Assembly (NCBI RefSeq): GCF_014356525.2
Contig: NC_052518.1
Coordinates: 26,919,319-26,983,318, forward strand
DNA from: Nilaparvata lugens
Taxonomy: Eukaryota > Arthropoda > Insecta > Hemiptera > Delphacidae
Reading direction: 5' to 3'
DNA length: 64,000 nt
The notes under the pieces are model-generated. The model had not been told where the DNA came from and searched no databases. It saw only the letters and a program-made list of their open reading frames with translations. Both the position numbers and the translations under genes were made by a program. This document shows, in pieces, positions 4,096 to 46,400 of this stretch (positions are counted from its first letter, which is position 1; the number at the start of each line of letters is the position of its first letter).

Positions 4096-4783
4096 CTCTC
4101 TCTCTCTCTCCAATGGCGCTACAGCCCAAATCGGGCTCTGGCCTCAACCAAAATACGCCTCCATCCATCTCTATCTAACGCCGCTCTCTTCCATCCCCTC
4201 AATTGTAACATTTCATTAGCATCCTTTTGCACTCTATCCTCCCATCGCTCCCTTGGTCTCCCCACAGGTCGTCTTCCTCCAGGCTGACCAACTAACACTT
4301 TGCTTGGCACTCGTGTTTCAGGCATTCTTTGCACATGCCCTGCCCATCGGAGACGCATCAATTTTATGTGGGCCGATAATTTGGGCTCTGCATAAAGCTC
4401 TTTCAATTCAGCATTCGTACGTATGCGCCATTGTCCATCCTCGCAAACCGGTCCATAGATTCTTCTCAGAATTTTTCTCTCAAACACATCCAAGATACCC
4501 GCTGTTCTGGCTGTGATGGTCCAAGCTTCACTACCGTAGCAAACCACCGTTCTTATTATACTCTTATAGAGCTTTATTTTACATATACGGTGTACATTTT
4601 TATTCTTGAGTATGCTCAGTAATGAGAAAAATGTGCGATTTGCGGCAAGGATACGTTTTTGAATTTCTTTTTGCTCCTCATTACAATTGGTCACACAAGT
4701 TCCTAAGTACGTGAAATTGTCAACTACTTGGTAATTCTTCCCACCACACTCCAGAAATGGCCCAAGCCGATTCCTGTTATGTC
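4096..4783 (-). mobile_element. 5'-truncated RTE-like LINE with 12 bp target duplication
   Basis: The 688 bp insertion is flanked by perfect direct repeats 'taagatttcaat' at 4084-4095 and 4784-4795. In element orientation it is 5'-truncated at 4783 and ends at 4096 in a (GA)n tail (CT run on the plus strand). It carries only the end of the reverse transcriptase ORF. Insertion in the Contactin intron, antisense to that gene, is by ordinary target-primed reverse transcription. The perfect duplication and open frame suggest it is fairly young. Confidence 0.85.
4119..4783 (-). pseudogene. C-terminal part of an RTE-like reverse transcriptase
   Basis: The minus strand is open for about 220 codons to the stop at 4119. 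It begins in the post-YADD part ('NFTYLGTCVTNCNEEQKEIQKRI', where the first half is the 'YLG' block), continues with 'KLYKSIIRTVVCYGSEAWT', 'FERKILRRIYGPV' and 'RLRWAGHVQRMPETRVPSKVL', and ends '..RDGWRRILVEARARFGL'. The 'WAGHVxRM' block and the basic 'GRRPVGRPRERWEDRV' segment are hallmarks of the thumb/C-terminal region of RTE/BovB-like and related insect elements. Endonuclease and catalytic RT motifs are missing because of the 5' truncation, so it is non-functional. Confidence 0.85.
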
Positions 4784-5279
4784 TAAGATTTCAATACATA
4801 ATTAAATCATATTACGTCACAATACATAATAACATCAATAATCACAAATTATTAAAATCAATATAGACAATAATAGTTCACTTCTAATTAGGCTACATTA
4901 TATAATTAACTATTTCATACAATAGTTTATATTAATAATTTATTCTACCTATTCCTGTCCTGAAAATTCTTCTAGAGAGTAGAACGGATTTGTAACTAGC
5001 CATTTGATGAAATGAGATGAAACGGACAGCAACAATGACTTGCAAAAACATGAGTGAACAAACTGAAATATTATATTAAAAAAAAAACATTGAGTAACTT
5101 GTTAAACTTGAGAGTTTTCTCCTTCCAAAAGTTGTTTGCACAGTCAGCTCTCTCTTTTCAAGTTAGATTGAAAACAATGTAATACATTAGAAAATAGTGA
5201 CATTCATTTCTCATTCATTGTTTCGTTATAATAAAATCATTTCATTCTAACATTTCCAATGTAATTTTATTTTCCACAG

Positions 5280-8062: not shown

Positions 8063-9793
8063 TCTATAATATAATAACTTATATGTTCAGTCTTTGCATT
8101 CAACCTCACGCACAAATAAATATGATTTTTGGTTAGTTCATGTTTCTATTGTATCTTTTTCACAATTAGCTAGGCTTGTAAGACTTGATTTCTGTGTTAG
8201 TATCCGTCCAATTCGTCATTTTAATTATTTCTATCTTTTAACTATTTTAACTATTAATTTGCGCAATGTTTTACTTGAAGGATGGCAAGACTTGACTTGT
8301 ATTCATACAAAATGTACTACATACTTATTTTTAGTTGTTAACATTCACGAATCTCTTGACAAATACTTGATTACGAGTATTATACTTTGTAACTGTGCCG
8401 TCCATTGGGTTTTTCTAGATATGTAGTGTTATTTTTGTACAATTGTTTATTGAGGCAAATTAAAGAATGTATTGTTCTGTATAATAATTCGCTTGCAGTA
8501 TCAATTAAATTCCTAACTATAACCCTCAACCCAATTGTAGAATGTTGTTTGATACATGAATTCAACTTGCTTCGCTTACCTCATTGTCTGTAAAAACTAG
8601 ACCCCCTTGGGGCGTGGGGCGTCAAATTTTCAGCTTCATTGTTTTTCGAAATGAGTAAACTTCTTGGTTCTCCATGGCTCTTGTAAATCGTCTATTTTGG
8701 GACAAACCTCCAAGAAATTTTTGAATATTGAATACGAAGACTTGATATTTATTGAAACTTGTAAATTGTCGATTTGGGAGGAACTTTGAAGAAACCTTGG
8801 AAAATTGGATTCAAAGTTGTAAAAAATTTGGTGTGATAACTCAGATAACTTTCCTTGTTCATTGAACAATGGACCTCACTCCACATTCAAGATTACATTA
8901 ATTAGTAAAGGAAAATATTCATAATCTATAGATATTTTTATCTATAGTAATGAATGAATGAATAAATATAATCTATTAGTGTTACTTGATAGAACCGCAT
9001 CAGGAGTTGGTAGCACTGGGCTGCCCTGTAATGTTGTTTTAGTTATTTGCTCCGTATTTTTCATCATTTTACAGTGGTTATTTGAAAGAAATAGAAGATT
9101 GGAAGAATTTGGATAGTTTATGAAAGTTCTAAGTACCTGTTTCAGTGAATTCCATGACTACATGACGGGTGAGTGATTAGTAACAGTGATTTAAATACGC
9201 GTACCACATACAATTTTTGAACGTTTTGACTCCATTTTTCTTAACCGGCATAGACCTACACACTACACGTGCTATTTCTTGTTCCTAATTCGACTTTGTG
9301 GTTCTACTAGGACTATCGTAACTGAGCAACTACCGGCTTCAGGAGTGATAACGGAAGTGAAAGTCCTACTCTGATAACGGCAACAATCTGAAAAGTTATC
9401 TATACTACCGCTGACTGTTTCAAAGCAGATAATCTTCAGCTGGTTTTTGTTTATATTGCTGGTTCTTATCTAGGCTACGTGTTACTATGACAACCTAGCG
9501 CGGCAGTTTTTGAACTTTTTTTCGTCAACAATGTTTCACTCTTTTACCTCAAATAAATGAGACTATGATAGTAAACGTAGAAAGTAGAGTGTATAAAGTA
9601 GACTCAAAGCTTTTAACCTTTTTCTCTTCCCAATCAGGAGCTTCCGTATTCTGCCTTGACAGCTCTCTTGGCATTTTTCTTCCTATCCTTTTCCTTTTCA
9701 CTTTTTAATTCCATATTTTTCGCATAATTTTTCATGAACAGTTCGCCATCACTCATTACCTTTTTGAATAATAACAACTGTGCATAATCGCTA
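8063..9793. other. Intergenic stretch; may include the LINE 5' UTR
   Basis: I find no gene or clear repeat. The last several hundred bases before 9794 are probably the 5' untranslated region of the following LINE, but I cannot place its 5' end because no target duplication is visible. Confidence 0.4.
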
Positions 9794-11167
9794 GTGATTT
9801 TTTCAAATATCATTATGTCTTCAATAATAAAGAAATTCACAACACAGAGGAATAATGTTGCTATTCAGATAGATGGCTTTAATTACCGAAAAGAACGTAC
9901 AATGTTGGATGGGAGAGTTTCGTTTAGGTGTCTATTCAATGGATGTCCCGCAACTTTGAAAACGAACGCCTTAATGCATAAAGTATTGGAGAAAAGTGGG
10001 TTGCATAATCATACTGCACCTGATCAGGATATTGATATTAACGATGACATTTCTATAGAGCAGACAACTCCAGTAGGCAATAAAAAGTTGATGAACATGA
10101 AACCATCTACTCCTGGCAGTGGCAAAATAACTCCCCCCTTGACATGTGATATGAGTGTAAACACACCGACTTCAAGAACAATCTCAACAAGTTCTTCTCC
10201 AAGCTTGCAAACAGTTGAGCTTCTCCAACAACGCGATGATTTAATAGCTCATTCTCAAGATTTACAAAAGCAAATTGAATCCCTCCAAGAACAAAAGAAG
10301 CACATCGAGTCAATGATGATTGAATTTGAAAAAGAGAATTTATCTGTCAAAGATCAGCTTAGATGTATGTCTACGACAATTGAAACTTTGAATGCAGATA
10401 ACAATGCTCTTAGGAGTGAAGTTATTTTGTCTAGGGATGATGCCAATAAGTGGAAAAATAAGTATGAAGACTTGTTGAGATCTAAATCTAGGCGATTTGA
10501 TGTTGGTGGTCAACTAGAATATTCTGGAAAAGCTCGGTCAAAGCGATCAAACATTCCAATTTTTAATGACGATGAATTTCCGGCGCTGGATACAACCAGT
10601 TATGAACACAACCGTCGCAAATGGGAATCTACAGGATATCAGGAGAAAAAACGTAGATTTCATGAAAATAAGAATATAGTTTTGGGCGACTCTATGATTA
10701 GAAACGTGACTCCTCAAAATTGTATTGTTGATGTTCGTCCTGGAATACGCATCGAGCAGCTAACTAAAGTGATTGAACATAAATATAAAAAATCGTCAGC
10801 ACAGAATTATAAAAGTGTATTAATTCATGTAGGAACAAATTCAATCCGCAGAGAATCTGAAGAATCCGTGGTGAATGAGATGAGGAACATGATAAGGACA
10901 GCCAAGCAATGTTTTAGTACATCAAGAATAATAATCAGCGGAATAATACTAAGGCGTTCAGTGAGTGACTCATACATTACGAGGATTAATGACTCCATCA
11001 GAAGTGAATGCGCCAAATTGGGTGTACTATTTGTTAACCCCAATAGTTTCATCAACACCAGAGAAGGCTTAGGCAAAGATGGTTTGCATTTGAATAGGTT
11101 GGGCTCAACTAGTCTAAGTAGAATGTGTGATAACGTTTTCAAATTATTAAATGATAAGGGAAACTAA
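9794..11167 (+). CDS. LINE ORF1: FLYWCH-like zinc finger, coiled coil, SGNH/GDSL esterase domain
   Basis: The 457-residue protein is intact. Residues 20-75 fit a FLYWCH-type zinc finger: 'IDGFNYRKERTMLDGR', then 'FRCLFNGCPA' with two cysteines, then 'GLHNHT' with the HxH pair; the usual Trp is Phe. Residues about 140-230 are a heptad-rich coiled coil ('LLQQRDDLIAHSQDLQKQIE' onward). Residues about 295-455 form an SGNH/GDSL esterase fold: block I 'VLGDSMIRNV' (Ser nucleophile), block III 'HVGTNSIRR' (GxN), block V 'DGLHLNRLG' (Asp and His). All four expected residue types are present. Esterase domains are known in ORF1 of CR1-type LINEs, where the partner is often a PHD finger. The likely role is nucleic-acid or lipid binding in the retrotransposition particle. 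MSSIIKKF, eight codons in, is an alternative start. Confidence 0.85.
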   Translation: MIFSNIIMSSIIKKFTTQRNNVAIQIDGFNYRKERTMLDGRVSFRCLFNGCPATLKTNALMHKVLEKSGLHNHTAPDQDIDINDDISIEQTTPVGNKKLMNMKPSTPGSGKITPPLTCDMSVNTPTSRTISTSSSPSLQTVELLQQRDDLIAHSQDLQKQIESLQEQKKHIESMMIEFEKENLSVKDQLRCMSTTIETLNADNNALRSEVILSRDDANKWKNKYEDLLRSKSRRFDVGGQLEYSGKARSKRSNIPIFNDDEFPALDTTSYEHNRRKWESTGYQEKKRRFHENKNIVLGDSMIRNVTPQNCIVDVRPGIRIEQLTKVIEHKYKKSSAQNYKSVLIHVGTNSIRRESEESVVNEMRNMIRTAKQCFSTSRIIISGIILRRSVSDSYITRINDSIRSECAKLGVLFVNPNSFINTREGLGKDGLHLNRLGSTSLSRMCDNVFKLLNDKGN

Positions 11168-11221
11168 TAAGCTGTGACAGGGGTGTGGAAGAAAATAATA
11201 ATAGAAGATACCTTGTCAAAG
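11158..11221 (+). promoter_or_regulatory. Candidate -1 ribosomal frameshift signal at the ORF1/ORF2 junction
   Basis: The heptamer GGGAAAC (11158-11164) is read in ORF1 phase as G GGA AAC and is followed directly by the ORF1 stop TAA. It fits the X XXY YYZ rule. Seven bases later an 11-position stem can form: CTGTGACAGGG (11172-11182) with CCTTGTCAAAG (11211-11221), with nine Watson-Crick pairs, one G-U and one mismatch. A further 6 bp pairing between the loop (11199-11204) and 11225-11230 could make a pseudoknot. ORF2 is in the -1 frame, its frame is closed by TAA at 11155-11157, and it has no ATG near its start. Function is inferred from layout only. Confidence 0.6.
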
Positions 11222-12144
11222 ACACTATTAATAATAGATATTTTAAAGAATCATATAGTTTGAAAATAATACATCAAAACATTGATGGAATAGTTAGTAA
11301 GGTAGCTCTTTTAGACATCTTGGTGGAGGATGAACAACCAGACATTTTAATATTGACCGAGCATGGCTTGAAAGATTATGAAATCAATTCCCTACCTATC
11401 AATAACATGTCTCTAGTGTGTAGTTACTGCAGAGTTGATATGAGAAAAGGAGGAGTGGTCGTGTATGCCAGTCTTGAATTTTTGAATGCTATTGATCATA
11501 AATTTACTGTTATTAATATTTCTGATTTGAGTCACATTAAGGATATTGAAATATGTGGCTTCAATTTTAAGATTGATGGAGATCCGTATGCTATAGTAGG
11601 TCTGTATCGATCACCTAGCGGTGATACTAATATATTTCTTGAAAACCTTGAAATTTTATTTAATCGTATTTGCAGTCATGTATCTAATAACGTCATTGTT
11701 GCAGGCGATTATAATATTAATGTTTTAGATAGTTCTTCTGAACATAGAAATCTTGTAAATATTCTGAATCTTTTTGATTTACACTACACGATTAAAGAAC
11801 CAACAAGAATTTCTAGAATAAGCAGAACAGCAATTGATAACATTGTCACTAACATTGAAAAAGGTATATATTCAGTACAGGTTGTTCATACACTGTTATC
11901 AGACCATACTGCACAGGTTTTTCGCACACATGGCACACGTGATTCCACCAGATTCAAGTCTAAACAAATTCAACTTGGTATTCCAATGTATACTTGTTCT
12001 AATGAAAACATAATAAAAATGAAAACCTCTTTGAGTGGTGAATCATGGGCTTCAGTTTATAATGCAATAGATGTAAACAGCCAATTTGCGAGGTTCCATG
12101 AAATTTTAGTCTCATCTTGGCATAAATTGCCCTTTGAGATGTAG
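11185..12144 (+). CDS. LINE ORF2, apurinic-type endonuclease region
   Basis: The frame is open from 11158 to the stop at 12144, with no ATG near the start. It reads as an exonuclease/endonuclease/phosphatase-fold domain that nicks target DNA for target-primed reverse transcription. Visible blocks: 'LKIIHQNIDGIVSK' (N block), 'QPDILILTEHGLKD' (catalytic Glu), 'GGVVVYAS', 'AIVGLYRSPSGDTNIF', 'VIVAGDYNINVL' (DxN), 'RTAIDNIVTN' and 'LLSDHTAQVF' (SDH). All main catalytic residues are present. The frame shifts around 12125-12145; the linker continues in another frame ('KRLKGEWITDEIKQIRHLL') before the RT part. Confidence 0.85.
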   Translation: MEENNNRRYLVKDTINNRYFKESYSLKIIHQNIDGIVSKVALLDILVEDEQPDILILTEHGLKDYEINSLPINNMSLVCSYCRVDMRKGGVVVYASLEFLNAIDHKFTVINISDLSHIKDIEICGFNFKIDGDPYAIVGLYRSPSGDTNIFLENLEILFNRICSHVSNNVIVAGDYNINVLDSSSEHRNLVNILNLFDLHYTIKEPTRISRISRTAIDNIVTNIEKGIYSVQVVHTLLSDHTAQVFRTHGTRDSTRFKSKQIQLGIPMYTCSNENIIKMKTSLSGESWASVYNAIDVNSQFARFHEILVSSWHKLPFEM

Positions 12145-12284
12145 AAGAAAAAAAACTCAGAGCAAAAAGAGATTAAAAGGTGAATGGATTACCGACGAAA
12201 TTAAGCAAATAAGACATCTTTTGGAAGTGGCTAAAATCAGAATTAATAATGGTTTGAGAATTGATATGGAGCAATTGAAAGCTA

Positions 12285-14148
12285 TTGAAAAAAATTTATG
12301 ATTATGAAGTTGTTCAGTCAAAAAAGCAATATATGAGTAATATAATTTTGAGAGCTTCAAATAAATCAAAAACAAGCTGGAAAATCATTAATGAATTTAG
12401 AGGTAAAACAAAACAAACACAGCCTAATATAGAACTAAAAGAAAATGAAAAAATTTTAACTGATTCCAAGCAGGTAGCTGATGCATTTAATAAATTCTTC
12501 ATATCAATGGCACCCAAATTAAAGGCTCAAAAATCAAATCTACAAATTAATGACTCCTCTTCTTCAAATTCAAATTTTAACAGAAATTTTTTCTTGTTTC
12601 CAACTAATAATGATGAGATTATAAAAATAATAAAAAGTATCAAAACGAAAAATAGTGTTGGATTTGATAATATCCCAGTGACAGTGATTAAGGAATGTTG
12701 TATTGAAATAGCTCCACCACTAGTATTCATAATGAATAACGCTTTCCAAACGTGTATTTTCCCAGATCTACTTAAAATTGCCAAGGTAAAACCATTGTTT
12801 AAACAAGGTGCTAGAACTGATATACAAAATTATAGACCTATTTCTATTCTTCCATCTCTGTCAAAGGTATTTGAGAAACTAATTTATTCCAGGATAATGA
12901 CTTACTTCGAAAAATTTGATTTAATTTCAGCTTGTCAAAATGGTTTTGTAAAAGGTAGGTCAACAATTACTGCAGCGGTCACTTTTGTTGAGAATGTTAT
13001 TGAACAGGTTGATAAGGGAAACTTTGTTATCGGTACATTCATGGATCTTTCAAAGGCCTTTGATAGCGTTGATAACGACATACTACTTGATAGGCTTTCA
13101 AATATTGGAATAAGAGGAATCTGTAGTTGTCTAACCAAGTCCTATTTGACAAATAGGTTTCAATTTGTTACAGTTGAATCTCAGTCTCATGTAGCTCAAT
13201 CGATGCGATTGAGTGTTACAAGAGGGGTGCCACAGGGTTCTATTTTAGGCCCATTGCTCTTTGTCCTTTACACTAACAATGTGCAAGCCTCAGTCCCAGT
13301 AGGTTTGAATATTACACTCTACGCTGACGATACATCATTGATGTTCAACAACAAAAACTTGAATGATCTTGAGGTAGAAGCTAATGTTAAAACAAATTTG
13401 GTTGCACAATATTATAATGAGTCAAAATTGGCAGTGAACCCGCAAAAGAGTAAGTGTATTCAATTTGGGTCTAAAAATCATCTCTTCCAGCCTATGATTA
13501 GTATTGGCGATTCAATGGTTGAAAATGTAACAGAGGCAAACCTACTGGGGTTAATGATAGACAAGGATCTCTCATGGAATGTGCATACTGATGAATTGGC
13601 CACTAGAATCAGTAGTAATCTGTTTGTATTAAGGAACATGGTTAGGTATGTGCCCAATGAAACAGCAAAAAAAATTATATTATGCACTGATTTACTCTCA
13701 TATTTCATATGGTATAGAGCTCTGGGGTAGCACAACATTACAGAATATTAACAAGATATTTGTACTACAAAAGCGTGCTATTAGGTACTTGGCGGGCCTG
13801 GGGTTTAATCATCCTTGTAGAGAATATTTTAAGAAAATGTCTATATTAACAGTACCGTGCATTTTTATTTTTAAAACAATATTGTATGTTGTAAAAAATA
13901 TTGATAGATTTGTGACTCATGCACAGGTACACTCTCACAATACAAGGAATAGAAATGATTTGACTGTGTAACCTCATAGGCTAGCTATGTTTCAAAAAAA
14001 GACCAGTTACATTGGGACAAAATTCCTGAATAAACTGCCTGGTAGTTTAGATCATAGAAACAAAACATTCAAAACAGATTTATACAGTTACCTTTCTAAC
14101 AAATGTTTTTATAGTGTTAATGACTTTTTATGTGACAATCATATTTAG
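12285..14148 (+). pseudogene. LINE ORF2, reverse transcriptase region (frame-broken)
   Basis: The RT core is in one frame to 13730 and then shifts to the next frame. Visible blocks: 'SVGFDNIPVTVIKECC', 'NYRPISILPSLSKVFEKLIY', 'QNGFVKGRSTITA', motif A 'GTFMDLSKAFDSVDNDIL', 'TRGVPQGSILGPLLFVLY' and catalytic 'LYADDTSLMF'. After the shift near 13665, 'YSHISYGIELWGST' and 'LQKRAIRYLAG' are the thumb-side blocks typical of CR1/jockey-type LINEs. A TAA at 13969-13971 interrupts the end, which otherwise reads on ('PHRLAMFQKKTSYIGTKFLN') to a stop at 14146-14148. The protein copies the element's RNA into DNA at the target site. This copy is disrupted. Confidence 0.88.
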
Positions 14149-14340
14149 GCTGTGAATATATTATAAAATAACGATGTTAAATATTACTATGTTGAAAATA
14201 TGACTGATACAAGACTGTAAACTGTGACTATAGCCTGTGATATTATGTATAACATGAAAATTAGTATTTTTTATTAGGTATAAGTTCATTTTAATGACGA
14301 TATTCAATTGTATTGTTTGATACTGCATTGAATAAATAAA

Positions 14341-14360
14341 ATATTATTATTATTATTATC
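14341..14360 (+). repeat. (ATT)n tail of the CR1-like LINE
   Basis: About six ATT units follow 'aataaataaaat' and mark the 3' end of the element. Short simple-repeat tails replace poly(A) in CR1-type LINEs. Confidence 0.65.
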
Positions 14361-14841
14361 TTGGTGTCTTCCTCAGAGCGATCAACACGCGTCTATACAA
14401 ATGCCATTATGAAACACTTTTTCAATCAATCTTGTTCTTCAAGTAGCCGGAGTACACAGTCCACAGTGACTGCACTATTCAAAGAGTAAAGAATGGTCTT
14501 TTTAGTGACTTCTCAAAAAGAATGACCAGTGATACAATAGATGAGGCTGTGGCCAAAAGGAAGAGCATAGAATACTACAAGTGAACAATTTCAAGATGTT
14601 CTTTTAAAATGAGATGAAGATGACGATTCAAAGGAAATTTGTTGCTAGTGAATGGAGAGGAGGACGTTGTTAGTGATAGAGAACCAACTTTTGCGCACTA
14701 CTCCAGACCCCTCAGTATCTCGTGAATAGAGATATACCTTAGATCACGTATGTACCGAGTGTTTCAAAATTAATGCCGGGGTTTCAACATATTTCAGTAT
14801 TATTTATTATATCAAACTTTATATATCAAAATAACTCAGTT

Positions 14842-28466: not shown

Positions 28467-31400
28467 CTGCAAGGCAATGCAATAAATACATTAAAATTTT
28501 CACATTTTGAGTTGTCCATCATCAAGTTGTACCGAAATTATTGATATCTTACTCATATTTGTATAATAAAAAACAGGATATCCCCCTTTTATAATAATTT
28601 CTTGTCCAAAATGATTGTGGATGTTGAGTAAGTTGCCTCATCTCGTGTAAGATCTTTTTTGAGGCCTCTAATAATGTTTGCTTGTGCTTCTCCAAAAGAC
28701 TGCAACATTTTTCCCTCTACTCTTTGCAAACATTTATTTGTTTGTATATATATATTAGAATAGTATACGTATTGACTTAAATTAGGACAGTAGTGTAAAA
28801 TAAGTTATAAAAAAGTGTTGTGTTGCCTATGCTTGCTCTGAAGGCGCTAACAGTTAACAGTACTGTAGAGACAAATCTCAGCACGTTTAGCACATTCTAA
28901 GATTTTCTGTTTGTTTGAACGTTTATATGCATATAAGTTTGTACAAAATCAGAGAAAAATCACGAATTAGAAAGATCTGTTGATCATGAATTGAAATTTT
29001 ATGCCATTTAGAAACTCATTTGAATGATGATGTTGCATCATAATAAAGATGAACAAATCTGAACTTTTTACAGTGGGTAGCACCAAGCAAGATCATGTTA
29101 GTGTTCAAAGATCACATGATTAAATATAGAATGATAAAGTAGTATCAAAATACGCAGAATTTACAAATTTCATTTTTATTATTAAATGTTTGTTTCTCTG
29201 TTCACATTGAGAATTTAAAGCATATAAATTTTAAACAAACCTTTCCAAGTTCCTTCTCTTTCTGCGACGAGTGAGGCATGCTTCGCAGCCGCTGAGGAAC
29301 GTACCAGAAGGACACATTCACCATTTCTGGTTCGAAAATCAGATGGAACTTGTCGGACATCTCTTTGATTCTCTTCACCATGTACTCACTCAGCTCCATC
29401 AATCTGTCCATGTGCTGTTCAAATCCATCAGTTCCCTGTCGATCACATTGAAATACATAGGAGAAATCAAATATCAAGCATCGGTTTTTCAAAGTCATTA
29501 TTACAATATTTGTTGTTTAATTTTTGTACATTTGGACTAGAACTAACAAGTTAAAAGAGTCTTTGAATTCAATAGAACATCAGTCACTAGGAGACATTAA
29601 ATTGTTTTCGTGTTGAATTATTGTAAAATGAGCAAGAACAGCTACTTTAAGAGAAGGAAAAGCCACCTACTAAGACAGTATTAAAAGGTATAGAATGATA
29701 CTAAAGGACAGAATTTACCATGTGCTTCTTTTGGTTTGAAATATTTCTGTGTAAAATAAGTGGCGAATCATCTGCTATTTTCCACACATGTGGAACATGT
29801 GTTTAGCAGCTCGTATTATTTTGTTAATCAGTTCTTATCAATATTTTAGTTCATAATTTCATTAAAGTCAACTTAGTCATCTAGTCCAATGTATTCTGTA
29901 TTATAGGAAATATGCAACAAAATTCCTATAAATACGACACAGATAGTGTTTGTTGATCTTGGAACATTTATTTATTTAATGAATGGTACAAGTACAAATC
30001 ATCAGTTGATCGGAAGAATGCAACAGTGTCAGCCTGAAACAGTTTATTTCTGAATTTTTGTATAGATAACATGCTCCACATAAGGGTTTATATTTCCACT
30101 CGCATGAAATTTAGTTCAATTTTCAGCTAAACGATGTGCACTCGAATAATTATATCATCAATTAATCAAATTCATTACATTAATTGAACAGTAACAAACC
30201 TTGGCACGCCACTGCAACCACAACTTGAAAATGTCATTATGGCGTCCACATTGGATGACCTTGTCACCAGTGTCATACTGCACATCGTATAACTTGTCTT
30301 GCATGAAGAGGTAATCAGCACTCATCTGATTACAACTCAGCAGAAGTCCCTGAAATATTTCAAATACACATAAAGATTGAATGGGATTGAAAAAGTTTGA
30401 ATTTCTATTTTAATAGATATATGTTATGAATTGGATTAGAGAACTAATTTATCCTCCTGAACACAGACGTGTAGTATAAACTTAATTTTCATTCTCTACA
30501 TCATCCTGGTTGGGAATGCACCTAGACGCTACAATCAATATTTACCATAATTTATTTATTTGGAATATTTATTTATTTATTTATTCATTTACAATGGAGA
30601 CAACGGGTTTCCCCAAACATGTCTCCTTTACAAGAAAATGCAAAATCTTAAAATATAATATATAGAAAACTTATAAAAAATCATAAAAAGAAATAAGGTA
30701 CAAATGGTAATATTTATCCTATTACATATGGTAATAAGGTACAAAATGATAATATGGAAAAATACAATAATTAAAAAAAAAATAATAATAATATGAAAAG
30801 ATGAGATGAATACAAAGCATCGAAATACTACTCATAGAAGGTCCAAAAATGGAAAATATAAAATTCTAATAACACAAGTATTAAATGAATGAAATAACCA
30901 AAAATATAACTTATTAATGAGTTCCAAGTCCCAAAACATATGCACACCCACACATACATGAAAAAATGATCGGTGTAGACCAGATCACAATATCAATGCT
31001 CAGACCAGACCATTGTATAGAGCTTTTCGGAATCTAGCGCGAGAGAACCAGAAGAGATCTAGGTGCCCGGACAAACTATTGTAGCTTCTCTGAATTCTGT
31101 TGAGAGGAGAATTGTAATTTCTAAGTGTTCTGGAACGAGGAACCAGAAAAGAAAATTCAGATCGACGAGCCACAGGTGAGATATAAATATTCATTTCAGA
31201 TAGCAAGTATGATGAATCAATTTCATTATTTAAGAGATCAAAAAGAAAAATAAGTGCTCTAACATCACGCCTAACTTTTAATGATGTAATATGGAATAAA
31301 GTTCTCAGTGACTCTGTTGGGAAATCAAACGGACAAAAACGATTAAATTTCTTATAGAACATGATTCTTAAAAACTTATTTTGAAGCCGTTCTAGAACAG

Positions 31401-34400
31401 CTATTCTATTCTATCCATATGAATATGGATTTCATATCTCTGAGGCATATTCTAGCAAGCTTCTCACTAGTGACTTATAAATCAGAATCAAAGGCTCTAC
31501 ATCACTAAAGGGCGAACAGGTCCGCAGAATAAACCCCATTTGTTGGTTGTCATAATTCATGTCATCTACTGCACATATATCCGTATTTGGAGCTTCTGCG
31601 AGACATATAGCAGCATATTGACTAGTAGTCAATAAAATTCATAATGAACTCCAAAAGAATTACTGAGAATAAGTTCCATAAGTATATGTTCCAATTTCAT
31701 TTGATTTTTCCAGTAGTAGGATAATAAGAAAAAGAGAACTGAAAATAAGAAAATGAGAAATTTTATTTCTCCTTTTCCAGGAGTGGCAGTATTGTCGATT
31801 TCCGATGCTATACTTCTATCATAGTACTTCTGTAATCATTGAGGAATTTTCGATCAGGAGGATAATATCACTTATTGATCAATATACTGTAAACACAAAG
31901 CATCTATGTAATGTAAAGCTGTTTTCATTTTCAGAAGAGACATTTCCAATAATGATATGTCACTCATTGATTAAATATAGGCTACTAAACTGTAAAAGCA
32001 AAGCATCTATGTTACGTCAGGCAGTTCTCATTTTCAGAGGAGCAATTTTCAAATTCCGATTCAGTTGCGAGAGTCAGATGCCAGAGGAGGAGAAGATTCC
32101 TGTGAAATTCTCGATTTAATTAAAATGCTGTTGGAAAAATGTTGCGCAATCGATTTTGCTGACAGCGCAACCTTTGAGGGGTAGAGCCCTGAGCACAAAT
32201 ATTACATTGCAGGCATCTGTGGCATGCAGGCACCCTTCAATAGGGGTGATTCTACAGTGCACAACCAACTATTTGCAAGTGCCTTCATTCTCAAGCTGTC
32301 CAATGCATTTTTTGCATCCGGAATGTTGTAGGTGTAGTCATTCGGGATTCTTCAAATTCCGAAGTACGAAGGTAATACATCTTTCAGGCCTCGGTTCTTT
32401 TAACATGCAATCTCTTGATTATTTATTGATGAGAATTCATGTTTTAACTCTACAATATTGTAGTTATTTAAAGCGTTTGAAATTTTAAAGTGTGTTGGTA
32501 AATAAATATGTTCTTTCATATTCAGAATGTTCAGACATGGAATTTCTCAAGTATTAATGAGAGAAGATAAAATATGAGTTATAAAATTAAACTGAAGGTG
32601 ATTGAAGTATTTAACATGTTTTGAAAAGCCATTTTTCCTTGCTGAGAATGCTTATCCAATAAAAGCAACTTCAGAGAAGTTTATCCGATATTAAATATAA
32701 GGTGATAAAAGCATATATATGCAGATTCTGGAATACTATTTTTGGCTGAGGATTTGATTTATACGTCGTATTCAATGAAGTTCATTTGTCACGCATGACA
32801 TTGATCTATCTGCATTATTTTACGAATAGTGTATTATGTTTGTGGGTTGGAAGTTGAGTCGTGGAATAAATTATTTGTTCCACATAATTATTGTTAGTTA
32901 AGCAATTGAATTCCCAATGTGTAAGTTATGAACGTGTGATTTATTACGTTCATTAACTGAGTAAAAAGGGAAATGTTATAATTTTACTTCATGCTTCATA
33001 CAAACAATAGTGAATTGGCATGTTGCAGATTAAGGTCTTAAACGGAATCTCCCAAATACTTTTTGGATTTTTATTTCGAGACTCATATTCCATTAGTCGT
33101 TAACAGATGATTGTTTGAGGTAGGCCTATTACTCACCTAAAAGAGTCTTGTCTTGAGACATAATTATGGCTGTCCCAGTTCAAGCAGTTTAACCAAATTA
33201 ATTGTATTTTTAAGATTGGAATTTTTTAAAGAAATATAGTGTTTATGTGTTTTAAAATATTATCTTGTAACGTTTTTTTCTCCCTAACGTCGATTCAAAA
33301 CTTTGAAAACTTACCAAGTTACCAAAGATCTTTATAAGGTAGGCTTTCAGAAAATGAGATTTTATTTAGTTAACCCCAATTTCAGTTACAATATTTTGGG
33401 CGACTACAAATTCTAGCCAAATAATTAGAAATATTATATATTTATTTTGTAAATTCATGATTGAATTGAAGTTTGTAACATTTGTGTTTGTAAATCCGAA
33501 ACTTACCAATATTTTTTTATTTATCAGCAATCGTAACTCAAAATAAATTGTGTAGGCCTATTTTTCTCTTTTAACGTTGCTGTTCATTTTACTACATCTA
33601 ACATAATACACCTACAAATAAAAAAATTTCCAAATCCATTATTTCGCTTGTTTATATTACATTTTTGGTGGGCTATCCATTTTGGGTTGCATAAACCCAG
33701 CTTTATGCTAGGACTTTCCTGGTATCCCTATAGAAACTTTGTGGTGGCACTCATTATTCTTGAATGAAGTTTGTATTTCAGTAGTCTATTATGTTTTAAA
33801 TAGTTGATATGAAACATTACAGAGCTGTAGAAAGATTCATTAGGAGAAATTGCGGGGATTTAATGAACTGGAGTATTTTGAAACACTAATTGTATTACTA
33901 AGTGCGTATTACAAAATGGATTGCTATTGTTGGGTTTTAACGGATTCAGATTCATGATTATTGAAAGGATTTTAATAATTGAGATTCATAATTTTAAATG
34001 TTTATTGCTAATGTTATTCAATGCTTATTGAAGAGTGATTTTGAGATCTTTGATGGAAAATACATGATTATTGAAAAAGGATTGAATTGGAAATCTACGA
34101 TTATTGTGAAGGGATTGAATTGGAATCAGAAAAAAATCGGACCGTTTTTATTATCAAAATCTTTTTTAAGATTCATAATATGAGGATAATATAGAAGATT
34201 TCTTTTGACTATTGCAAAAAGTTCGCCTCAGCTAATGGTTGGGATGAAAAATATAATTTATTAAGTTATATTTGCCGTTTCATTTGGAAGAAGTATTTTG
34301 AAGTTATTGGAAACAATTTGTTTAATCAGAAAAACTATGAATTATGCCAGCAAAGGAAAAACTTGAAATCTCAAATTGGAGAAATTAGAAAGGGAATTCA

Positions 34401-40400: not shown

Positions 40401-43400
40401 TTACAGTGTCAAACAATTGCGACTTGGAACTTTCATCAGTCATGACAGGTAATTCAGAGAATATTGAAAATATTCTTAGTAAACTACTAGATCAGAAGCT
40501 TGGCTCCCTGGCGTCGAAATCGACATTTCAGAACTGAAGAAATGTTTCAGCGAATTATCCGAAGAGAATAAACAAATTAAAAAAGAGCTGTCAATTCTAA
40601 AGTCAGTTAATAATAGGCTTATTAAAAAAGTTACTGATTTGGAAGATCGTTCTAGAAGGAACAATTTAATCTTTAAGGGTATAAAATATGGAAAGAACGA
40701 TGCCTGCTGTGATGTTATAAAAGATTTTTGTGTCAAAGTGTTGAAGTGTGGGAGGGACATACATGTAAATAGAGCACACACTTTAGGGCCGCAAAAAGAT
40801 AATGCACCACTTATAGCTCATATTCCTGCAGATAAAGACTTTGATTGCATTCTAAAAAATACATTCAAGCTTAAAGGAACTAGTTTTGTGGTGCACAAGG
40901 ACTTTAGTTACGTGACACGTAGGAAAAGGGGGGTACTGCTTGCGCTCAAAAAAGAAATAACGCGAACTGTAGGAGAAAAAAAGATTCACCTGAATGTTGA
41001 TCGTCTGTTCGTGGAAGGACAAGTGTTTACCTTTGATGATGAGGATGGACTAAAAGCTGGTAGCAGTGACGGATTAGTCAAATTGAAAGAAATGTTCAAA
41101 GTGGACTTCAAAGGCTATTTAAACAAGATACTGGAGAAAGGACAAACTGGTGTCGAGAACTGGACGTTGATAGGGTACAGGAATAGGGAAGTGTTGTCTG
41201 TCACGAGTATGAAGATAATGAGTGTATTAGTAAAACAGAAAATGAAAGTTCTATAATCAAATTAGTGGGATACAATGTTGCGGGTTTAAAGGGTAAGACA
41301 AATGATATTAATTTTATAAATTTCATTAAATCGTATGATGTTTTTTGTTTATGCGAAACTTTTCTTGAAGAGTCCGATAGTTCATGTATTGGCCATATAT
41401 TTTCAGATTACGATTTACGTTTTATTCCCGCAATAAGAACCTGTAATAGAGGACGAGCAAGTGGGGGGATTCTGTACGGTTACAATAAAAAGAAGTTACA
41501 GAATACAGCAAGTTTTGTTGTACTGGATGATACTGAAGTTATAGCGCTAAAAATTGGTAATGCAAAAGTCCACATAATACCTATTTATTTAAATAGTGTG
41601 CAAGAGAGATGGGATAGGGATTTATTAGAATTGTGGAGTTTACTGGAGAGTCATGGAAAGGATAAACATTTCATACTGCTAGGTGATATCAATAGTAGAA
41701 TAGGAGATTGTCAAATATTACCTGAAGAATTGTTGGCTACTGTAGTAAGAGTCAATAACTCGAGAAAATCTAAAGACAGTTTAGTGAATGGTAGAGGTAG
41801 GACAATTCTAGAGCTTTGCGAAAGACATGACATGGTAATATTGAATGGTAGAACAATGGGGGATAGGGATGGTGAATTCACATTTGTTAGTGGACAGGGG
41901 GCCTCGGTCATTGATTTTTGTTGCATATCCAGTGCACTGGTAGATTTAATAGATGATTTCAGAGTCAATTCAATGATATTTTCAGATCATTTTCCTATAG
42001 AAGTTGAAGTGGTCTCCAATAAGCTACGGGAAGATGAATCATACTTATTACCGCTGCCTAGGTATAGATGGGTGGAAAATGCGAAAGAGGCATATCAAGG
42101 GCGTATTAGAAGTAAATTGCAAGACTTATTCATAGATTTACATAGCGCTGAAGAGCAAGCAACTCAGGTGATTAGTGTAGTTAAGGAATGCATGGATAAT
42201 TATTCGTGTGAGAGAGGAAGAGTGTGTGCAAAATTTAAGCAAGCATGGTATGATTGGGAATGTGAGAGAGCGCGAGTGCGTAGTTTTAAGAATTTGAATT
42301 TATTTAGGAATAGTAACACCACTTATGCAAAGGAGGCTTATCTCGAGGCTAAAAACTATTATAAAAATATGTTGCCAAAAGAAAAAACGTTATTATCAGA
42401 GTATGAGTGATAGATTAGCGAATGTACGAGACTCCAAGGGTTTTTGGGAAGCGGCAAAGGTTTTCAAATTTAATAAGAAAATAATAAACAATTCTATACG
42501 GTCAGATGAGTGGACTCAGCATTTTAAGGAGATTTTCACCTCAAGTAGAGTAGCAGCATCAGCAGACTATGTAATTCCTTTCAAAAGAGATGACATACTA
42601 GACAGTGTGATAGAGATGTCAGAGTTGAAAGCTGCATTGAAAAAGGCTAAGGAGGGAAAAGCACCGGGCACGGATGGGGTACCTATAGAGTTTTTCAAAA
42701 ACGCGTCAGAAGAGCTTTTTGAAACGATTTTGGGACTCTTCAATCATGTATTAGAAAATGCAGACGTACCAACCAGTTTTAGGGATGCGGTCATATTCCC
42801 TATTCACAAAAAAGGAGATACGGCCAATGCAAAAAATTATAGAGGCATATCATTTGAGAATGCGCTAGCAAAGTGGTTTGCAGGTGTTTTGCTGGCTAGG
42901 CTTGAAAAGTGCATATAAACAATGCACTCTGTGAACACCAAGCGGGGTTTAGAAAGGGCTATTCCACGATTGATAATGTTTTCAATTTACATAATATTAT
43001 AAGTTTGAAATTAAGAGGAAGAGGGAAGAAATTATATTGTTTCTTTGTGGACCTGAAATCCGCGTTTGATCGAGTTGATAGGGCTGCACTTGTTCTCAAA
43101 TTATATGATATAGGTCTATCAAATAAATTCGTTAGAGTTATCAGTGAGCTATATAGAGATACAAGAGCTAGTATATGGTGCAACAAAGAGATGACAGATT
43201 TTTTTCAAACAGTCAGCGGTTTAAAACAGGGCTGCTTGTTATCTCCAATTTTGTTCTCCTTGTTTATTAATGATTTGCATGATAACATGGTGGAGGGTGT
43301 ATGGATTGATGTGCTGAATGTTAAGTTATTACTCTATGCCGACGACTTGGTTTTGTTTGCCTCTACTCCAAAGGCCTTACAGAGAATGATTAATAATGTA

Positions 43401-46400
43401 AATGAATACTGTGACAGATGGGGATTGGAGATTAATACAGATGAATCTAAGATTATGGTATTCAGGAAAGGAGGACGATTGGCTGCACATGAAAAATGGA
43501 CCCTAGGTGGTAACTCTATTGAGGTGGTAAACAAGTACAAATATTTAGGAGTAGTGCTTACCCCTCAGCTTTCATTCACACAGCATGTAAAGGAACGTGT
43601 ATCGGTAGCTAAATTTGCGATAAATGGAATGTGGAGAAATTTTATTGCGAAGAATGATGTAGGAATTGAAGCAAAGTGGAAAGTATATCATGCTGTTATG
43701 AAGTCTGTGGCAGTGTATGCAGCACAAGTCTGGGGGTTCAAGTACTGTGACGTATTAGAGTCTTTACCTAGATTTTTTGTAAAAAAGTTGTTGGCATTAC
43801 CTAGAGCCACACCCAATTATATATTACAGAATGATGGAGCTGGATTTAGAATCAATGTATTTATATGTTTTGAAAATGCACATCGAGTATATTGCTAAAA
43901 CCATGAGTCTCGGCAGGCACAGATTAACAAGAAAATTGGCTGAGAAAATAATTAGATATAAGATATCTTGGTTTAAGGAGTGGATGCGTTTGGATATAGA
44001 GTATGAATGTAACTTAGCAGAATGTTTGGTGAATGGAAGTGAATGGAAGAGTGAATTTGAGCGTATGCATGAGAGAATGAAAGAGAAAAATAGACTGAGT
44101 TGTTTGCAAAGCGCAACTAATTCACGATTTCACAGCGTTTATCATATTTTAGACATGAGTAGAGGAAAGAGCTATTTGAAATCTGGATTGAACAGGAAAA
44201 TGATGAGTTCTATTCTAAAAGCTAGAGGTGCATTATTAAATTTGAACTATGGACATGGAAGAGAGGAAGAGCAGTGGATTTGTTCAATGTGCAATATGGG
44301 GCAGAGGGAAAATATTAAACATTTCATTGGAGTAAGTCCAATCCTAAGTGGAGTTCGAAGAGCCATTTTGGGGAAAGTTGAATTGAGTGACTCAGAGGTC
44401 ATTGATTGGCTCAATGGAAGTGATTGGTGGAAGCTGGCACGGTACGTGCAACAAGCAAGCAAAATAAGAGAGTCACTAATCGAAGAATTCAATTATTGAA
44501 TTGAGTAGGTCCTAATAGTAGTAATTAGTAATTTGGCTATATAGTGGCGAAAGTATGACATTCAATTAAAATCATTCAAGTATTGTTTTTTTTCTGTTTT
44601 GTTTTGATGAAGGGAAAAGTTTATTATTTATTCACTATGTATTTTCAATTCATTATTTTAAGAATATTGCATATTATTTTTATTTCTAGGATAACAGTAT
44701 CATAATTATTATTATCAAATTGTTAACTTTATTTTTAGTTTTGTTGATCGAAGGATATTAATCAGTTAGGATAAAGCATTGTAATAATGATTCAGTAGAT
44801 ACCGACTCCTGACAGACAACCTTCCGGTTATGTCAAATTAGTCTTTTATACAGTTCACTAGGTTTATTAAGAAGTATTTTTTTTGTTTTGAAAATTTTTT
44901 GTTCAATATGTTGTATGCTTGATGATTCGTTTGGTTTTGTTTCTTAAATAAAGACGCTTATTATTATTATTATTATTATGTGAACCTCAAAATCAATAAG
45001 GTTAGTCAACCTCATCCATAAAGACTCAAATACTTCGATAGTCAAATACTTACACGTGATGTGTTAATTTTTACATACATTCTAGCAAACTCTACTACTA
45101 CATCCTACATCCGACTATAATATCTATACACTTTCTGTTTGTTGAATTTCATACATCAGGAAAATACCAAACATGCAAATTTATTGGGACCGGATCTCAT
45201 TCGGATTATTGAATTTTTAATCCATCATACAAACTCAATGACTTGACACTCCTTATAGAACATATTTTCTAGTTGTAGAGGTAACTTTTACAACTTTACT
45301 CCATTCCACGATCTTACTGTAATCTCCGATTTCACGTATTTACTATATCTTCAGATTAACAATAATCAGTTCTGGGTTCAGGTATGCTGGACTTCAAGTG
45401 AATTCAAAACCATCAGAATGGGATTAGAACAATAATTTTAAAGTTATTTATAGTCCACTCACTGATGTGGATTTGACTCTTTTATATATTTTGATTATAT
45501 ATCTATTTCAGGTAAATTCTCCCTGTCAATAATGTATATCACGTTATCATGCTTTTTTCAAACATATTTTAGTTCATGTGAAAAGTTTTGTTTCTTTGTC
45601 GAACAAAGGGAAAAATGACAATTAAATTTAGTTTAATTCAATTATCTTTTGCACTCGTAAGTTACGTTTTTTGTAGTAACACTTTTGACATTATTGAAAG
45701 TCAGTCTCTCAACACATGCGTTAAACAATAAGATTTTATGATGAAAAGATTTCTGAGAGAAGTGTTCTGTTAATTGTTTCGTTTGCACTCGTAAGTTACG
45801 TTTTTTGTAGTAACACTTTTGACATTATTGAAAGTCAGTCTCTCAACACATGCGTTAAACAATCAGATTTTATGATGAAAAGATTTCTGAGAGAAGTGTT
45901 CTGTTAATTGTTTCGTTAATGTTGACGAAGGTTCAAAATACAGATGTCTCTGATCGATCTTACCTTTCAATACCCGTCAATCTTGGATGGCGGTACTTTT
46001 TAGAAAAGAGAAGGCCGCCTCCCCAAGCCGCCTGCAGAGAGAAAGAGAGAAACAGCTCACATCAATCAATGTCAATGGTCTCAATAGCGTAATTATAACA
46101 CAGCCAAATTGACAAGTCATTATTGATAAGGGATTAGAGATCCTTAGTTTATTCAATAAAATTAATATTCCAGATTCAAATACGCCTACACCCAATCGTC
46201 ATAACTCTGATATTTTATATTGATTATTAACAGAAGAGCTTAGGTAGAGGTAGTCACTGAGTAGATAACGATTAATTGATTGAAGTTGGGGTAGCAAACT
46301 GATGCATCAATTATTAAGCAGTAAATTGTAGTAGAAAAGCAAAAAACTATATTTTAAAAAGTGCGGCTATTTGCAGCACGTTTATGCATCTTCAATTGTA

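What the first reader, a model, noticed from the sequence alone, without database searches (positions are those of the whole stretch)
11158..11221. Textbook -1 frameshift cassette joining ORF1 and ORF2 of a non-LTR retrotransposon
GGGAAAC sits in the right phase (G GGA AAC) immediately before the ORF1 TAA. The spacer is 7 nt. An 11-position stem (10 pairs including one G-U) follows, and a 6 bp loop-to-downstream pairing could form a pseudoknot. ORF2 is in the -1 frame, is closed by a stop at 11155-11157 so that it opens exactly at the heptamer, and has no ATG near its start. GGGAAAC is an established slippery heptamer in retroviruses. Non-LTR elements are generally thought to use reinitiation or internal entry for ORF2, so an ORF1-ORF2 frameshift fusion in a CR1-like LINE would be unusual.
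Basis: partly seen in the sequence, partly recalled or inferred. Interest (0 to 1): 0.85.

Follow-up and report, generated by a model that had tools for sequence, protein, structure and literature searches.

The report
Likely frameshift site in LINE element
A decayed jumping gene carries, exactly where its two protein genes meet, the kind of slippery sequence that retroviruses use to make a joined protein, and a few related elements end their first protein with the same two amino acids, which hints at a retrovirus-like trick for making the copying enzyme.

Summary
GGGAAAC lies at 11158-11164 in phase G GGA AAC, next to the ORF1 stops TAA TAA. ORF2 is in the -1 frame, opens after the stop at 11155-11157, and has no ATG until codon 84, past the endonuclease HQN (Asn codon 41) and TEH (Glu codon 68) motifs. 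ORF1 is a FLYWCH finger plus SGNH esterase (best PDB match 4c1b); ORF2 is endonuclease plus reverse transcriptase. This copy is dead (at least two stops and two frame changes in ORF2). New support: 3 of 24 ORF1 relatives with a 15-45 residue tail end in Gly-Asn-stop at the same place although the residues before it vary; they are the three rows nearest the window by tree path. Only their protein, no DNA, was seen. The hairpin beats its own shuffles, but 10-13% of stretches of this window fold as well, and the pseudoknot pairing is at chance level. I judge -1 frameshifting likelier than not (0.6): a new variant of a known kind. The decisive test, other copies in the source genome, could not be run: that search did not complete 19 times.

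The parts
9815..11167 (+). ORF1, 450 codons from ATG 9815 to TAA: FLYWCH zinc finger (about 9839-10012) and SGNH/GDSL esterase (about 10679-11149)
   Evidence: Pfam FLYWCH 25.9 bits over cut-off 23.6; Lipase_GDSL_2 31.4 under cut-off 32.9; PDB 4c1b, E 8.3e-9
11158..11164 (+). slippery heptamer GGGAAAC, read G GGA AAC in ORF1
11165..11171 (+). 7-nt spacer holding the ORF1 stops TAA TAA
11172..11221 (+). hairpin downstream of the heptamer (arms 11172-11186 and 11208-11221, 21-nt loop)
   Evidence: modest against window controls
11158..12144 (+). first open part of ORF2 in the -1 frame, APE-type endonuclease (Pfam match about 11311-11907); ends at TAG 12142-12144, a lesion of this copy
12279..13730 (+). 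second open part of ORF2, reverse transcriptase (Pfam RVT_1 match about 12822-13526), in another frame than the first part
13678..14130 (+). C-terminal part of ORF2, again in another frame and with a stop at 13969-13971
   Evidence: tblastn of P0034; stop position read

Best explanation
An esterase-type non-LTR retrotransposon whose living ancestor expressed ORF2 by programmed -1 ribosomal frameshifting at G_GGA_AAC. Most ribosomes finishing ORF1 stop at TAA TAA; a minority slip back one base with the Gly and Asn tRNAs in place, perhaps helped by the hairpin 7 nt downstream, and go on in ORF2, making an ORF1-endonuclease-reverse transcriptase fusion. Shown: heptamer, phase, frames, lack of an early ATG, domain content, Gly-Asn-stop in three relatives at protein level. 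Inferred: that slippage happens, its rate, the role of the hairpin, and that the fusion works in retrotransposition.
For: The heptamer stands at one of only 3 workable placements. G_GGA_AAC is named among the most shifty -1 heptamers for mammalian cytoplasmic ribosomes (PMC5009743, passages). No ORF2 ATG before codon 84, past the endonuclease motifs at codons 41 and 68. ORF1 relatives P0001, P0003 and P0021 end KGN, QGN and SGN, and the alignments of P0001 and P0003 with the window run to the last ORF1 residue. That is 3 of 24 tails of 15-45 residues, or 3 of all 30 (binomial 1.4e-4 and 2.7e-4). They are the three rows nearest the window by tree path (0.7, 1.53, 1.6). Two of six ORF2 relatives, P0034 and P0035, were predicted from starts at window codons 94 and 106, so they may also lack an early ATG.
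Against: One dead copy. No nucleotides seen for any relative, so Gly-Asn-stop is not shown to be GGGAAAC. 21 of the 24 tails end otherwise, among them rows hardly farther away (P0019 at 1.72 by path). The rows are related and the count was made after I had seen P0001's ending, so the binomial overstates. Four of six ORF2 relatives have a predicted start at or before the endonuclease (P0031 -13, P0030 19, P0032 38, P0037 38). Hairpin ordinary for this window, pseudoknot pairing at chance, and the hairpin's central pair drops to 0.376 in a 160-nt context. A second LINE in the window has a -1 overlap without early ATG and without a heptamer.
Confidence: 0.6

Rival explanations
1. Termination-reinitiation: the ribosome stops at TAA TAA and restarts nearby in the ORF2 frame at a near-cognate codon, or at an AUG that this copy has lost, so ORF2 is made as a separate protein.
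For: Coupled reinitiation is the described model for SART1, where a downstream structure is needed, and is proposed for L1 (PMC5972666, passages; PMC2881922, passages). GTG at codon 10, TTG at 35, ATA at 4 and ATT at 24 are in frame. Four of six ORF2 relatives have a predicted start at or before the endonuclease.
Against: No ORF2-frame ATG before codon 84; it does not explain the in-phase heptamer or the shared Gly-Asn-stop.
Confidence: 0.2
2. Coincidence in a decayed copy: the -1 offset or the heptamer arose by mutation after death, and Gly-Asn at the end of ORF1 is kept for protein reasons or by common descent.
For: The copy has at least four other lesions in ORF2. Any classical heptamer at a workable place has about a 2% chance. 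Hairpin and pseudoknot are not exceptional.
Against: ORF1 is intact over 450 codons and ends where P0001 and P0003 end; GGGAAAC itself has about a 0.02% chance.
Confidence: 0.15
3. Independent ORF2 expression by internal ribosome entry, a spliced RNA or an internal promoter, with the junction irrelevant.
For: Internal initiation of an unknown kind is considered for mammalian LINE ORF2 (PMC5009743, passages). Nothing here tests it.
Against: An ORF2 begun at codon 84 or later would lack the first endonuclease motifs.
Confidence: 0.05

Closest known systems
Retroviral and LTR-retrotransposon gag-pol -1 frameshift sites of the G_GGA_AAC kind
   Same: heptamer, phase, short spacer, downstream hairpin, enzymes in the -1 frame
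   Different: sits in a non-LTR element and would join an esterase ORF1 to an endonuclease-reverse transcriptase; no convincing pseudoknot
LINEs of the CR1 and L2 groups with an esterase (type IV) ORF1, such as zebrafish ZfL2-1
   Same: SGNH esterase in ORF1 (4c1b match), APE-type endonuclease and RT in ORF2
   Different: FLYWCH front domain; ORF2 without early ATG in the -1 frame. PMC4120745 (abstract and passages) found the esterase ORF1 type only in two exclusively vertebrate groups; the host of this window is not identified
Paramecium LINE groups 1 and 2
   Same: ORF2 in another frame than ORF1; recoding suggested from sequence (PMC5405496, passages)
   Different: +1 offset, a ciliate clade, re-initiation left open
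SART1 and L1 ORF1-ORF2 coupling
   Same: ORF2 translation depends on ORF1; SART1 needs a structure downstream of the junction (PMC5972666, passages)
   Different: uses an ORF2 AUG, which is missing here

Membership tests
programmed -1 ribosomal frameshift site | X XXY YYZ heptamer in the 0-frame phase inside the usable overlap | tested here: met
programmed -1 ribosomal frameshift site | stimulatory RNA structure a few nt downstream | tested here: inconclusive
   hairpin at 7 nt, z -2.55, but 89 of 933 and 502 of 4,000 window stretches as stable; 6-bp pseudoknot pairing in 704 of 2,000 shuffles
programmed -1 ribosomal frameshift site | heptamer conserved in related elements | tested here: inconclusive
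   Gly-Asn-stop in 3 of 24 relatives with a 15-45 residue tail, protein level only
programmed -1 ribosomal frameshift site | measured frameshifting above background | not testable with these tools
   needs a reporter assay
CR1/L2-group LINE with esterase ORF1 | SGNH esterase in ORF1 | tested here: met
   4c1b, E 8.3e-9; Pfam Lipase_GDSL_2 31.4 bits, just under its 32.9 cut-off
CR1/L2-group LINE with esterase ORF1 | APE-type endonuclease and RT in ORF2 | tested here: met
   Exo_endo_phos 34.2 and RVT_1 104.7 bits, over cut-offs
CR1/L2-group LINE with esterase ORF1 | RT placed in the CR1 or L2 lineage by phylogeny | not tested
   no named reference RTs were fetched
termination-reinitiation of the SART1 kind | ORF2 AUG overlapping or close to the ORF1 stop | tested here: not met
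   first ORF2-frame ATG at codon 84; that an AUG was lost in this copy is not excluded
2A / StopGo peptide | NPGP at the C-terminus of the motif | tested here: not met
   GVEENNN at 11182-11202 (ORF2 reading)

The most novel reading that the evidence does not exclude
A subgroup of esterase-type LINEs has taken up retrovirus-like gag-pol logic: a conserved -1 frameshift at the last two ORF1 codons makes a set minority of ORF1-endonuclease-RT fusion, which would carry the enzyme into the ORF1 particle together with its own RNA.
Probability: 0.45. Interest if true: 0.68.

Novelty: new variant of a known kind. Interest (0 to 1): 0.5.

Why it matters
How LINEs make a little ORF2 protein and tie it to the right RNA is an old question; the models in the passages that I read are reinitiation or some unusual initiation. 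A frameshift fusion would give a set ratio and a physical link between the two proteins, and the site is small enough to test directly in a reporter.

Tried and rejected
Stop-codon readthrough: rejected, ORF2 is in the -1 frame and two stops stand in frame 0. 2A peptide after the shift site: GVEEN is there, NPGP is not. Pseudoknot: pairing at chance level. Rfam: 0 matches at gathering thresholds in 9000-14500. Second copy in the window: blastn of 9001-14400 against the window found only itself. A search for a target-site duplication next to the 3' tail gave only a piece of the TTA repeat, so the 5' end of the element is not settled.

DNA of relatives: five viral-contig scans, four by protein and one by a DNA pattern, gave no relative. 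One genome-contig scan gave one 27%-identical stretch in a rumen MAG (L001), not followed up.

Control: the second LINE of the window (40483-44499) also has ORF2 in the -1 frame and no early ATG, yet 0 of its 23 workable placements is a classical heptamer. So a -1 overlap does not by itself bring a heptamer, and a heptamer is not needed for such an overlap to exist.

Literature: ten counted searches of the open PMC library. In the listings and the passages that I opened I saw no -1 heptamer frameshift between ORF1 and ORF2 of a non-LTR element. Odon 2013, Luke 2014 and Kapitonov and Jurka 2003 are not held, and I recall, from no call, early frameshift proposals for overlapping LINE ORFs, so prior art is not excluded. 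Passages of PMC1925062, PMC4981915, PMC4700185, PMC5408684, PMC7175516 and PMC9587200 did not bear on the junction.

Full report
Observation. The sequence is as described: GGGAAAC at 11158-11164, read G GGA AAC in ORF1, then TAA TAA. ORF2 opens in the -1 frame directly after TAA 11155-11157 and stays open to TAG 12142-12144. Only three heptamer placements could carry a ribosome from ORF1 into ORF2 (last base at 11158, 11161 or 11164); the third is GGGAAAC. From the window's own rates (934 classical heptamers, 149 of five efficient kinds that I chose, 7 GGGAAAC, in 127,988 positions) three places give about 2%, 0.35% and 0.02%; the multiplication is mine. Four of the five kinds are named as most shifty in PMC5009743 (passages); TTTTTTA I added from recall.

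The RNA. A hairpin 11172-11186/11208-11221 follows after 7 nt: 13 pairs, two G-U, one 1x1 mismatch, one bulge. The stretch 11165-11225 folds at -11.3 kcal/mol, z -2.55, 3 of 200 shuffles as good. Against real sequence it is less special: 89 of 933 stretches after classical heptamers (this one included) and 502 of 4,000 random stretches of the window fold as well or better. A 6-bp pairing of the loop with downstream sequence appears in 704 of 2,000 shuffles. So the pseudoknot is unsupported and the hairpin is a plausible, unproven stimulator. Its pair 11176-11217 has probability 0.999 in contexts of 50, 80 and 120 nt, 0.376 at 160 nt and 0.925 at 200 nt.

The element. ORF1 (450 codons from ATG 9815) has a FLYWCH zinc finger above the Pfam cut-off and an SGNH/GDSL esterase slightly under it; the esterase is supported by a match to PDB 4c1b, 'ORF1-encoded protein' (E 8.3e-9), which I take to be the ZfL2-1 esterase of PMC3905857 (passages; the link of code and paper is recalled). 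ORF2 has an APE-type endonuclease and RVT_1. The copy is dead: TAG 12142-12144, a frame change before 12279, another near 13680, a stop at 13969-13971 (asterisk, position read). The RT was not placed in a tree; CR1 or L2 membership is an inference from the esterase. The host was not identified.

No early AUG. The first ORF2-frame ATG is codon 84, whereas similarity to the relatives P0031 and P0032 starts at codon 38, with HQN ending at codon 41 and TEH with its Glu at codon 68 (that these residues are catalytic is recalled). Near-cognate codons exist: ATA at 4, GTG at 10, ATT at 24, TTG at 35. Non-AUG initiation is therefore not excluded.

Relatives of ORF1. Three protein searches (the second was held to E 1e-10 and scored only the 7,990 candidates sharing most words) gave 37 proteins, 30 of them with a DG[LV]HL motif. 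Of these, 24 have 15-45 residues after the motif and 3 (P0001, P0003, P0021) end in Gly-Asn, as ORF1 does: binomial 1.4e-4 for 3 of 24 and 2.7e-4 for 3 of 30. This ignores relatedness, and I had seen P0001's ending before I counted; on the other hand Gly-Asn is what the heptamer predicts. In a tree of 28 esterase domains (P0025, P0028 and P0029 dropped for lack of the first motif) P0001 joins the window (98/97) and P0003 joins P0021 (89/88, below the tool's mark for firm support; the bootstrap had not settled). By path P0001 (0.7), P0021 (1.53) and P0003 (1.6) are the nearest rows, closely followed by P0019 (1.72) and P0007 (1.74), which do not end in Gly-Asn (P0007 is cut). The stretch before Gly-Asn differs: FKLLNDK, INIINEK, FRCLQQ, VEMYLS. 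A kept Gly-Asn-stop after a varied tail is what a G GGA AAC site would leave at protein level. The other 21 of 24 tails end otherwise, for example P0008, P0009 and P0010 in -NE, P0006 in SKNL, P0004 in AGNTKRPDA. Other families may use other means; -NE-stop could fit an AUGA overlap, but that is a guess without DNA.

Relatives of ORF2. Of six examined, P0034 and P0035 were predicted from starts matching window codons 94 and 106, P0032 and P0037 from 38, P0030 from 19 and P0031 from -13. Two of six thus resemble the window; four have a start at or before the endonuclease. Starts chosen by a gene caller are weak evidence either way.

Mechanism. Shown here: site, phase, frames, domain order, missing early AUG, Gly-Asn-stop in three relatives. 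Inferred: slippage of the Gly and Asn tRNAs, help from the hairpin, a fusion made in a minority of passages. I hold this at 0.6, reinitiation at 0.2, coincidence at 0.15 and independent entry at 0.05.

Known work. PMC5009743 (passages) names G_GGA_AAC among the most shifty sites, says that the gag gene of the non-LTR element HeT-A requires frameshifting, and considers an unknown kind of initiation likelier than bypassing for mammalian LINE ORF2. PMC5972666 (passages) and PMC2881922 (passages) describe coupling or reinitiation for SART1 and L1. PMC5405496 (passages) suggests +1 frameshifting or re-initiation for two Paramecium LINE groups. In my ten counted searches I saw no described -1 heptamer between ORF1 and ORF2 of a non-LTR element; three key papers are not held.

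Limits. The search of the source genome did not complete (19 calls). No DNA of any relative was seen. Nothing was measured.

Noticed in passing
window 9839-10012: ORF1 starts with a FLYWCH zinc finger; relatives carry SAP (P0004), MBD (P0006) or a sub-threshold PHD match (P0001) before the same esterase, as if DNA- or chromatin-binding front domains were swapped. One paper search for FLYWCH with LINE ORF1 terms listed two papers, neither on this by its title.
   Followed up: partly
window 40483-44499: A second LINE, also with ORF2 in the -1 frame and first ATG at codon 216, but no classical heptamer at any of 23 workable placements.
   Followed up: partly
window 11182-11202: GVEENNN just after the proposed shift site looks like a 2A motif without NPGP; relatives P0007 and P0033 have GGVEENPGR and GGVEENAGP near their N-termini.
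   Followed up: partly
window 4119-4790 (-) and 31000-31410 (-): Open frames that look by eye like C-terminal parts of other LINE reverse transcriptases.
   Followed up: no
proteins P0008, P0009, P0010: Related ORF1 proteins end in Asn-Glu-stop, which could hide an AUGA stop-start overlap; no DNA seen.
   Followed up: no
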